Source: Deltaproteobacteria bacterium IMCC39524
GTDB lineage: Bacteria > Desulfobacterota > Desulfuromonadia > Desulfuromonadales > BM103
NCBI GenBank assembly: GCA_029667085.1
Contig: JARUHJ010000004.1
Span: 124,001 to 188,000, forward strand
Length of the DNA: 64,000 bases
Reading direction: 5' to 3'
Part shown: piece by piece, positions 14,007 to 15,789 of the stretch
Layout of the letters: every line of letters begins with the position of its first letter
Position numbering within the stretch: position 1 is the first letter of the stretch
Translations under genes and position numbers: made by a program
Notes under the pieces: generated by a model
What the model saw: the letters and a program-made list of their open reading frames with translations, nothing else
What the model was told of the DNA's origin: nothing
Databases searched by the model: none

Positions 14007-14035
14007 TTGACCTGATTTTCGAAATAGTATATCTT
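14007..14035 (+). promoter_or_regulatory. promoter for the riboswitch transcript
   Basis: TTGACC (14007-14012) and TATCTT (14030-14035) are 17 bases apart. Transcription would begin at about 14042, a few bases before the first strand of aptamer helix P1. That is where a riboswitch leader should start. Confidence 0.6.
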
Positions 14036-14044
14036 AGCTACCGT

Positions 14045-14133
14045 TAACTCTCCGATAATAGCAAAGCTAGGGCGACCTAGTGACGCAAAGCTAGGGGTCA
14101 CACCGTGACAGCCCAGCTACCGAAGAGGAGTTA
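14045..14133 (+). ncRNA. GEMM-I-type riboswitch, probably 3',3'-cGAMP class
   Basis: Conserved GEMM-I features appear in order. The P1 strand TAACTCT (14045-14051) pairs with GGAGTTA (14127-14133). Then come CGATAATAGCAAAG and a stem CTAGG/CCTAG closed by a GCGA tetraloop (14068-14080). The invariant GACGCAAAGC follows (14082-14091), then a stem GGTCAC/GTGAC (14096-14109), then CAGCC and GCTACCG (14116-14122). The base just before GCAAA, at 14060, is A. In c-di-GMP-I aptamers this position is G; in the Geobacter cGAMP aptamers I recall it is A, and the surrounding CGAYAATA and GACAGCC strings also match those aptamers. Ligand identity is inferred from that base and the overall likeness. Confidence 0.85.
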
Positions 14134-14152
14134 GGGGCAACAACACCTAAAC

Positions 14153-14185
14153 GTCTATCTTCACTATCGGAGATAGGCTTTTTTT
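14153..14185 (+). terminator. riboswitch expression-platform terminator
   Basis: GTCTATCT (14153-14160) pairs with AGATAGGC (14171-14178), one pair being G-U, around a 10-base loop. Seven T follow (14179-14185). Within the hairpin, TATCGGAGA (14165-14173) is perfectly complementary to TCTCCGATA (14049-14057) in the aptamer P1 region, which gives a possible antiterminator. Confidence 0.8.
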
Positions 14186-14391
14186 GTAGGTACAGATAAA
14201 TCAGCAAGACGTTCAATTCAACAACAATTTAGTCGTCGCTTTGAAACTAAGCACAATGCCTTGATGGCGATGCTTCTTAATTCCTTAAATTAAAGGGCAA
14301 GCTTGCAAAGTTATTTTAAACACGTCTTACCAATAGTTGCAGTTGCTTTGACGAGTTGAAGCCAGGCTTTGCTTTTGACACGGAACAGGCC

Positions 14392-14997
14392 ATGAAATAT
14401 CTAATAACTCTTTGTTTGATTTTGACAAGTACCAGCGTGTTAGCGTATGAAATGCCGCTTAAATCTGTAAATCTTGACAAGAAAAAAGTGTATCTCGAAG
14501 AATTCTTACGGCAAGAAGAAGGAAAATATGCACATAATCAGATTATACTTCGTCGAACAATTGAAACCCCTAGTAAGATACAGTTAGGTTTTGCGATAAT
14601 GGCAGATGAAGACGTATGTGTAAAATACCAAAGAACTAACATATTCAGAGGTGAAGAAGATTATTATAACCGCAACATGCGAAACGTCTATTATGACCAA
14701 TCAAACCTTTTGAACAAAGTCTGTATCGAGTTCGAAAGTCAGCCCGCAGGCTCTAACAAGTGGATCACCCTTGACTTTGACAATGCAAAAAAACTTGAAA
14801 AAGATAACCAGGAATTAATTAGATTTTCTGTATCACAGAATGACAACAATGCCGATGTGATCGATATTAATGCCGAAGTTATTAATGTAACAGAAACAGG
14901 AGAAGGCTATACAGTAGACACTGTCGAGGAAGGTTTTTTCAGAAACCCGGGATTAAGCTTTACATATCAACCTCAAATTGAAGTCGTTAGTTATTAG
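14392..14997 (+). CDS. exported protein of unknown family under the riboswitch
   Basis: From ATG 14392 the product has 201 residues. It begins with a clear signal peptide (KYLITLCLILTSTSVLA, cut before YEM). The mature part is about 180 residues, rich in Asn, Asp, Glu and Tyr, with two Cys (in DVCVKY and KVCIEF) that could form a disulfide. It has no haem motif, no transmembrane segment and no known catalytic motif. Base composition and codons are far more AT-rich than in the neighbours, which suggests recent transfer. It is the first gene after the cGAMP-type riboswitch and terminator, so that signal should control it. I do not recognise the family. Confidence 0.8.
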   Translation: MKYLITLCLILTSTSVLAYEMPLKSVNLDKKKVYLEEFLRQEEGKYAHNQIILRRTIETPSKIQLGFAIMADEDVCVKYQRTNIFRGEEDYYNRNMRNVYYDQSNLLNKVCIEFESQPAGSNKWITLDFDNAKKLEKDNQELIRFSVSQNDNNADVIDINAEVINVTETGEGYTVDTVEEGFFRNPGLSFTYQPQIEVVSY

Positions 14998-15187
14998 TAA
15001 GCAGAAAAGCCCTCAACCTTTGCATTCGACTGTCAGGGATTTGTCTTGCCTATCGTCTTACTTTAAATCCGGCGGCAACTCCTTCTTACATTACCTGGGG
15101 ATATTCAGCATGCGGATTGCAAGGGACAAAACCTGACACTGCCTGCCAGATCAAGGACCTATGTCTACACAAAGAGTTCTTCAAGCG

Positions 15188-15610
15188 TCATAAAGAACCA
15201 CCAGCCTTCTTTGCGACAATCTCCCCAAACTTCTTGCCATCAATAGAAAATCTCTCATGCGTGCCCTCCCCGATCAGGTCTTGCTCATCCCTGGCAACGA
15301 TCGACCACTTGGTCCTTGCGCCATTGACTTCGAGCAAGGTCACTTCAACCTTGACCTCCATCCCGGGCGGTGTTGCTGCAGCATGAGTCACACAGACATT
15401 TGTACCAAGACTGATCTCACCTTCATTCATGTAGGGTCGCAATGCTTCCATACACGCCCACTCCATAAGGCCGACCATAAACGCGGTAGCGAAAACCGGC
15501 GGCATGGACTGGAAAAGATCTGACTCCTGAAAGACGTAGGGTACGGTTTTGTCATTGGGAACCTTATAACTATGGGTAAAGGTCAGGCCCTTTTGCAGCG
15601 TCTCTTTCAT
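15188..15610 (-). CDS. hotdog-fold thioesterase family protein
   Basis: From ATG 15610, preceded by TTAGGAGTTGCT, the protein has 140 residues; the longer open frame to 15706 lacks a ribosome site. Segments QSMPPVFATAFMVGLMEWACMEALRPY and GTNVCVTHAAATPPGMEVKVEVTL follow the pattern of the fluoroacetyl-CoA thioesterase-like hotdog proteins, where Thr, Glu and His form the active site. It is cytoplasmic and stands alone between the AT-rich island and a divergent transporter gene. The acyl-CoA substrate is unknown. Confidence 0.75.
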   Translation of the reverse strand: MKETLQKGLTFTHSYKVPNDKTVPYVFQESDLFQSMPPVFATAFMVGLMEWACMEALRPYMNEGEISLGTNVCVTHAAATPPGMEVKVEVTLLEVNGARTKWSIVARDEQDLIGEGTHERFSIDGKKFGEIVAKKAGGSL

Positions 15611-15789
15611 AGCAACTCCTAAAATTTGCAATTGATTGAGCATGTTTTGATTATCAATAATCCTAGCGTGTTTTCCGCATCTATCAACAGGAGAAAAGAA
15701 GACCACAGCGTTCCCCTTGATTGCCCTTGACTCTCCTAGGGCGGCAAGTCAGAATGACCGCCAAATCAACAGGAAACGAATAGACTACG

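What the first reader, a model, noticed from the sequence alone, without database searches (positions are those of the whole stretch)
14045..14185. A cGAMP-class (A20-type) GEMM riboswitch with its own promoter and terminator
The segment has every core element of a GEMM-I aptamer: the GCAAA motif, the invariant GACGCAAAGC, a GNRA-capped P2 stem, a P3 stem and GCTACCG. The base corresponding to G20 of c-di-GMP aptamers is A at 14060. From established knowledge of the class, A there shifts preference toward 3',3'-cGAMP, as in Geobacter. The promoter ends at the first base of P1, and a terminator with seven T follows.
Basis: partly seen in the sequence, partly recalled or inferred. Interest (0 to 1): 0.88.

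Follow-up and report, generated by a model that had tools for sequence, protein, structure and literature searches.

The report
A20-type cyclic-dinucleotide riboswitch, probably OFF
This looks like a genuine RNA switch that senses a bacterial signal molecule, probably cyclic GMP-AMP; its anatomy suggests that, unlike the studied Geobacter relatives, it turns its gene off rather than on when the signal is present.

Summary
Rfam RF01051 (GEMM-I) matches 14050-14124 (+), 61.6 bits, the only gathering-level hit in the window; the base aligned with G20 is A at 14060. A promoter-like site and a terminator with seven T flank it. The 3.78-Mb genome has at least 38 GEMM-I matches; 16 of 38 have A there.

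cGAMP sensing is plausible but not shown: three GGDEF domains carry the Hypr serine. The crystallised Geobacter cGAMP aptamer is A20/C21-G46; this one is A20/G21-C46, where a tested A-variant largely kept c-di-GMP binding.

The main addition is logic. Among 114 aptamers of ten related genomes, 42 of 46 C21 types have terminators made from the aptamer's own 3' strand (ON design of pilM), while 45 of 66 G21 types have separate terminators (OFF design of Cd1). This element is of the second kind, and its strands can form an antiterminator that consumes P1, so ligand should cause termination. The likely target is an apparently exported protein of unknown function found in 3 of 40 genomes. New variant of a known class; ligand and polarity are predictions.

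The parts
14007..14035 (+). sigma-70-like promoter TTGACC-17-TATCTT
   Evidence: 9 of 12 matches, near chance alone; same layout before the three most similar aptamers (by eye)
14044..14051 (+). P1 5' strand; pairs with 14124-14127 (CTCT/AGAG, 14048-14051) or, shifted, with 14127-14134
   Evidence: duplex of the extended strands -7.2 kcal/mol
14050..14124 (+). GEMM-I (c-di-GMP-I) aptamer, A20/G21-C46 type; A20 at 14060
   Evidence: RF01051 61.6 bits, E 1.3e-9; base read
14049..14057 (+). TCTCCGATA, aptamer/P1 5' strand complementary to the terminator loop and 3' arm (14165-14173)
   Evidence: 9-nt exact complement, reached in 11 of 5000 dinucleotide shuffles; exact in the G005 orthologue, one mismatch in each of two paralogues
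14122..14162 (+). predicted antiterminator hairpin: aptamer tail/P1 3' strand (GAAGAGGAGTTAGG) with linker and terminator 5' arm (CCTAA...TCTTC)
   Evidence: MFE fold; GAAGA and TCTTC present in this element and the three most similar aptamers
14153..14185 (+). intrinsic terminator, 10-bp stem, 6-nt loop, seven T; does not overlap the aptamer
14186..14391 (+). leader of 206 nt between terminator and start codon, aligned with the G005 orthologue's
   Evidence: alignment A2
14392..14997 (+). controlled gene (inferred): 201-aa protein with an apparent signal peptide (by eye), no Pfam family above cut-off
   Evidence: single gene by position: the next listed ORFs are an 89-aa TTG ORF (15117-15386, +) overlapped by a 172-aa ORF on the minus strand (15188-15706)

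Best explanation
A GEMM-I riboswitch of the A20/G21-C46 kind with its own promoter controls one apparently exported protein by transcription termination, most likely as an OFF switch. Without ligand, the nascent RNA pairs the aptamer tail/P1 3' strand and linker with the terminator's 5' arm, and the P1 5' strand with the terminator's loop/3' arm; RNA polymerase reads through. A cyclic dinucleotide, probably 3',3'-cGAMP made by the cell's Hypr-type GGDEF enzymes (with some c-di-GMP response), locks P1 and the aptamer, frees the terminator and stops transcription. Shown by computation: aptamer, A20, terminator position, competing folds, synthase candidates. Inferred: ligand, polarity, gene control.
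For: Aptamer. A20 at 14060. The terminator lies wholly downstream of aptamer and P1, so a ligand-bound aptamer cannot block it; this is the Cd1 OFF plan, [PA] plus [TH] (PMC9262584). The free MFE is the antiterminator, -49.2 against -46.8 kcal/mol with the terminator forced; G005 orthologue -50.4 against -47.4. Nine-nt complement between P1 5' strand and terminator: 11 of 5000 shuffles. In 16 of 19 separate-terminator aptamers of this genome the nascent fold pairs 5 to 19 bases of the terminator 5' arm and loop with upstream sequence (no shuffled control). Ligand: GGDEF domains with the Hypr serine: L053 (best PDB hit 6d9m, E 1.5e-42), L054 (6d9m, 8e-34), L058 with GGDDF, the combination reported for GSU1937 (PMC8835794, passages). 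A20 is also in the G005 orthologue's aptamer and in a different aptamer before the G003 orthologue (34.9 bits).
Against: No binding or expression data. A20 in a G21-type aptamer may bind both ligands: a Desulfobacca acetoxidans variant gained cGAMP affinity with only perhaps slight weakening for c-di-GMP (PMC9481103, passages), and changing the corresponding G11 of Cd1 to A or C had no large effect (PMC9262584, section read). For the paralogue C1:23851 the terminator state is itself the MFE (-47.2), and the 9-nt complement has a mismatch in two of the four close members. Cognate against swapped pairs of aptamer tail and terminator show no locus-specific coevolution (p = 0.23; P1 5' strand against terminator p = 0.54). 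Polarity at the G003 orthologue is unclear: my rule finds no terminator of either kind at its T run, though the four close relatives of its aptamer are of the overlapping, ON-like design.
Confidence: 0.55

Rival explanations
1. A dual or c-di-GMP-preferring GEMM-I riboswitch: A20 only relaxes specificity, and c-di-GMP is the main ligand in the cell. Same OFF mechanism.
For: The core other than A20 is the canonical c-di-GMP type. A tested A-variant kept c-di-GMP binding (PMC9481103); G to A at this base of Cd1 had no large effect (PMC9262584); the OmcST switch of G. sulfurreducens is described as sensitive to both (PMC6456294). 10 of 13 GGDEF domains here carry Asp, not Ser, at the signature position (read by eye where my pattern failed).
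Against: A20 is frequent rather than sporadic, 48 of 86 G21-type aptamers of the genus sample, and the genome has three Hypr-type GGDEF domains. A to G at this base switched Gmet_0970 from cGAMP to c-di-GMP (PMC6456294, passages).
Confidence: 0.3
2. A cGAMP ON switch like those of Geobacter: ligand prevents termination.
For: Close relatives of the aptamer before the G003 orthologue have aptamer-overlapping terminators (4 of 4).
Against: Here the terminator stem (14153-14178) shares no base with aptamer or P1; nothing in the bound state would block it.
Confidence: 0.12
3. A decayed or idle copy: the aptamer may bind but termination is constitutive.
For: The genome has many copies, some degenerate (C1:22079, core GAGAAAAG, 34.8 bits). 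The energy gap between the two states is only 2.4 kcal/mol.
Against: Promoter, aptamer, linker, terminator and leader align with the G005 orthologue's, and an A20 GEMM-I aptamer precedes the gene in the three genomes found to have it.
Confidence: 0.08

Closest known systems
GEMM-Ib / 3',3'-cGAMP riboswitches of Geobacter (Gs1761 pgcA, pilM, Gm0970)
   Same: GEMM-I fold with A at the G20 position; transcriptional control by an intrinsic terminator; cells with Hypr GGDEF enzymes
   Different: The crystallised member has a C-G pair after A20 (PMC6274999, passages), here G-C; pilM's terminator uses the aptamer's own strand and it is an ON switch (PMC9262584), here the terminator is separate
Cd1 c-di-GMP-I riboswitch of Clostridioides difficile
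   Same: Terminator separate from the aptamer, antiterminator consuming the aptamer strand; OFF plan (PMC9262584)
   Different: Cd1 senses c-di-GMP and has G at the position; here the base is A
Desulfobacca acetoxidans cluster-3 c-AMP-GMP riboswitch
   Same: An A-variant highly similar to c-di-GMP-I aptamers, with better cGAMP binding (PMC9481103, passages)
   Different: Predicted ON there and in tandem with a cobalamin riboswitch; here a single aptamer, predicted OFF
Class I GEMM G20A mutant (Vc2 by recall)
   Same: A20 in a canonical GEMM-I core; crystallised with cGAMP (PDB 4YB1, named in PMC6274999)
   Different: A laboratory mutant; here the combination is natural

Membership tests
c-di-GMP-I / GEMM-I riboswitch (RF01051) | covariance-model match above the gathering score | tested here: met
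   61.6 bits against 35, full length
c-di-GMP-I / GEMM-I riboswitch (RF01051) | P1, P2 with GNRA loop, P3, conserved GCAAA and GACGCAAAGC | tested here: met
c-di-GMP-I / GEMM-I riboswitch (RF01051) | binds a cyclic dinucleotide | not testable with these tools
   needs in-line probing or ITC
GEMM-Ib (cGAMP) riboswitch | A at the G20 position | tested here: met
   A at 14060, model position 11; numbering to Vc2 recalled, consistent with A14 of the Geobacter aptamer
GEMM-Ib (cGAMP) riboswitch | C-G pair next to A20, as in the crystallised Geobacter aptamer (a feature of that member, not proven necessary) | tested here: not met
   G21-C46 here; C15-G40 in Geobacter
GEMM-Ib (cGAMP) riboswitch | selective for cGAMP over c-di-GMP | not testable with these tools
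   no binding data
GEMM-Ib (cGAMP) riboswitch | a candidate cGAMP synthase (Hypr-type GGDEF) in the same genome | tested here: met
   3 of 13 GGDEF domains have the Hypr serine; two are best matched in the PDB by 6d9m, which I take to be the GacA structure of PMC6456294 (code recalled); activity not tested
GEMM-Ib ON-switch design (pilM) | terminator includes the aptamer 3' strand | tested here: not met
   stem 14153-14178 lies outside the aptamer
Cd1-type OFF design | separate terminator plus an antiterminator that uses the aptamer strand | tested here: met
   computed folds only, and not the MFE in one close paralogue

The most novel reading that the evidence does not exclude
GEMM-I riboswitches of this bacterial order form two lineages with opposite logic, marked by the orientation of the base pair beside the ligand: C21-G46 means ON, G21-C46 means OFF. 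Both lineages contain G20 and A20 members, so one genome runs all four combinations of two signals and two polarities. The element at 14045-14185 would then be a natural cGAMP-sensing OFF switch, a polarity I met in none of the papers that searches brought up and that I looked into (the founding papers were not held).
Probability: 0.45. Interest if true: 0.62.

Novelty: new variant of a known kind. Interest (0 to 1): 0.42.

Why it matters
The cGAMP riboswitches described in the papers I saw raise gene expression when cGAMP rises, or are predicted to. An A20 aptamer on an OFF platform would mean the signal can also repress genes, and a genome with at least 38 GEMM-I matches would be a dense natural test bed for how RNA switches change ligand and polarity. 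The pair-orientation rule, if it holds at the bench, would let polarity be read from the aptamer sequence.

Tried and rejected
Cognate against swapped complementarity of aptamer tail and terminator, on 39 of 57 G21 separate-type loci left after removing similar ones: no signal, p = 0.23; P1 5' strand against terminator p = 0.54; P1 5' strand against linker p = 0.39. Against hairpin-plus-T sites of the window, riboswitch terminators are somewhat more complementary to aptamer tails (-9.39, n = 39 of 70 after removing similar ones, against -7.58, n = 43; p = 0.014), and against their own reversed sequences p = 0.007. The 43 controls were not checked to be true terminators. Modest support for antitermination, not proof.

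Terminator classification was done by three rules; each later rule was adjusted after I saw exceptions of the one before, so the cleaner numbers are less independent. The association is strong with the rule as well.

Structure prediction of the downstream protein was of low confidence (mean pLDDT 43.9, three sequences), so no fold search was run. Pfam gave nothing above cut-off (one weak match, 12.9 bits).

The order-wide pattern counts (136 genomes) include many chance matches (see their control columns) and the listing is cut, so I used only 40 P2-like matches picked by eye, not all of them.

Constitutive terminator, decayed copy and ON switch were considered and ranked lower. Kellenberger 2015, Nelson 2015 and Ren 2015 are not held.

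Full report
What is there. Rfam's c-di-GMP-I model matches 14050-14124 on the plus strand over its full length, 61.6 bits, E 1.3e-9, and nothing else in the window reaches any family's gathering score. Model position 11, the base before GCAAA, is A at 14060; by recalled Vc2 numbering this is position 20, and it corresponds to A14 of the crystallised Geobacter cGAMP aptamer (PMC6274999, passages). A terminator (14153-14178, 10 pairs, seven T) follows. A promoter-like pair of hexamers precedes it; alone it is close to chance, but the same layout with a 17-nt spacer stands before the three most similar aptamers of the sample: the G005 orthologue's and the paralogues C1:23851 and G005:C89:121576 (by eye).

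Genome context. The genome (3.78 Mb, 19 contigs) has 38 RF01051 matches at E <= 0.001, 36 above the gathering score; only 150 of 411 first-look candidates were scored, so this is a lower bound; none of 14 control genomes rings. All 11 genomes of the genus searched have matches, 2 to 38 each. In this genome 16 of 38 have A and 22 of 38 have G at the position. G. sulfurreducens is reported to have 17 GEMM-I riboswitches (PMC6456294, section read).

Signal source. Thirteen GGDEF domains were found. Three carry the serine that marks Hypr enzymes: L053 (C4:481937) and L054 (C9:53932), both with GGDEF and both best matched in the PDB by 6d9m, an endolysin-GGDEF fusion that I take to be the G. metallireducens GacA structure of PMC6456294 (code recalled); and L058 (C1:1058804), with GGDDF, the combination reported for the second cGAMP synthase GSU1937 (PMC8835794, first part and passages). 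L053 has a GAF domain before GGDEF. The other ten have Asp at the position; of these L055 has a degenerate GTDQF and L056 an SGDEF motif (L055 and L056 read by eye). Activity is not tested, but the genome looks able to make cGAMP.

Two aptamer lineages. The core splits by the pair next to position 20. One group reads GCAAA...GACGCAAAGC (G21-C46), the other CCAAA...GACGGAAAGC (C21-G46). The crystallised Geobacter cGAMP aptamer has C15-G40 right after A14, so it is of the C21-G46 kind; the element here is G21-C46.

Lineage and terminator design. I asked where the terminator's 5' arm begins. Of 125 matches in the ten other genomes of the genus, the 114 listed were fetched. With the rule: C21 type (46) 42 overlapping the aptamer, 2 separate, 2 none; G21 type (66) 45 separate, 15 overlapping, 6 none; 2 aptamers have another base at 21. 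Dropping the 'none' rows and those 2, Fisher p = 5e-14. With a rule revised after seeing exceptions: C21 42/2/2; G21 52 separate, 7 overlapping, 7 none; p = 5e-19. Own genome: C21 (17) 13 overlapping, 3 separate, 1 none, and G21 (20) 16 separate, 4 overlapping, 14/1/2 and 17/3, C21 14 overlapping and 3 none, G21 19 separate and 1 overlapping; one aptamer has A21. Outside the genus I fetched 40 A20/G21-type matches picked by eye from a cut listing: 6 were dropped because my rule found no aptamer 3' end; of 34, 30 are separate, 2 overlapping, 2 none. Related copies are not independent, so the p-values overstate the evidence.

Meaning of the designs. In pilM (G. metallireducens) the terminator consumes the aptamer's own strand, so ligand prevents termination: ON. 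In Cd1 (C. difficile) the terminator stands apart and an antiterminator consumes the aptamer's strand: OFF (PMC9262584; abstract, most of the introduction and two discussion sections, the second in part). In G. [quoted passage not shown] The element here carries the cGAMP-type base on the Cd1-type platform.

Competing folds. The free fold of 14043-14186 is an antiterminator, -49.2 kcal/mol: TCTCCGATA (14049-14057) pairs with 14165-14173, and GAAGAGGAGTTAGG (14122-14135) with linker and terminator 5' arm. With the terminator forced, the aptamer and a short P1 (14048-14051 with 14124-14127) also form, -46.8. The G005 orthologue gives -50.4 against -47.4; in the paralogue C1:23851 the terminator state is itself the MFE, -47.2. 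The 9-nt complement is reached in 11 of 5000 shuffles and is exact in two of the four close members. In 16 of 19 separate-type aptamers of the own genome the nascent fold pairs part of the terminator 5' arm upstream (no shuffled control). A swap test found no locus-specific coevolution (p = 0.23); these terminators are somewhat more complementary to aptamer tails than other hairpin-plus-T sites of the window (p = 0.014). That ligand binding tips the balance towards termination is inference.

The gene. The ORF at 14392-14997 encodes 201 aa with an apparent signal peptide and no Pfam family above cut-off. Of 40 genomes searched 3 have it (own, G005 80%, G003 72%), and the own genome has one copy. 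In G005 the same riboswitch lies at nearly the same distance (343 against 342 nt). G003 has a different aptamer right upstream, 34.9 bits (gathering 35), also with A at the position. So an A20 GEMM-I aptamer precedes this gene in the three genomes although the module was exchanged, which favours a role for A20. The design of the G003 switch could not be settled: no terminator of either kind by my rule, though its four close relatives are of the overlapping kind. If it is ON, polarity changed with the module, which is against a simple story.

Ligand. cGAMP is my leading choice, with dual recognition a serious rival: a Desulfobacca acetoxidans A-variant gained cGAMP binding with perhaps slight weakening for c-di-GMP (PMC9481103, passages), and G to A in Cd1 had no large effect (PMC9262584). 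In favour, A to G at this base switched Gmet_0970 from cGAMP to c-di-GMP (PMC6456294, passages).

Verdict. An authentic member of a known riboswitch class, one of many in its genome. What is new is the combination of A20, G21-C46 and a separate terminator, and the link between aptamer subtype and terminator design. Polarity and ligand remain predictions.

Noticed in passing
L012 (G000:C1:20300-28000), aptamers at C1:20949, 21168, 22079, 23851: Four GEMM-I copies within 3 kb; the first two are a near-identical tandem pair, and the third (core GAGAAAAG, 34.8 bits) has lost the conserved binding motif and looks decayed.
   Followed up: partly
12 of the 152 aptamers, e.g. G000:C5:211463, G000:C6:98244, G003:C626:1627, G010:C341:12870, G005:C114:38934: A subgroup with CGCAGAG instead of CGCAAAG; all 12 have A at position 20 (57 of 152 overall), a possible linked change in the binding pocket. 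Four of the 12 (CTCTGCC type) have aptamer-overlapping terminators, an exception to the G21/separate rule; eight are separate.
   Followed up: partly
G000:C1:674268, C2:144111, C3:506888: Three near-identical A20/C21 aptamers with similar upstream and terminator sequence precede genes that look unrelated: dispersed riboswitch cassettes.
   Followed up: no
G000:C2:143321 and C13:18562: Nearly identical G20 aptamers, each before a similar small protein with CxxCH haem-binding motifs; a duplicated riboswitch-gene unit.
   Followed up: no
L058 (G000:C1:1058804-1059097, minus strand): A GGDDF-motif GGDEF protein with the Hypr serine and an apparent N-terminal membrane segment (by eye), like GSU1937 by motif; not compared with it by sequence.
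   Followed up: partly
window 14186-14391: The 206-nt leader between terminator and start codon aligns with the G005 orthologue's, and its first part (AACAATTTAG) also with the paralogue's; function unknown.
   Followed up: no
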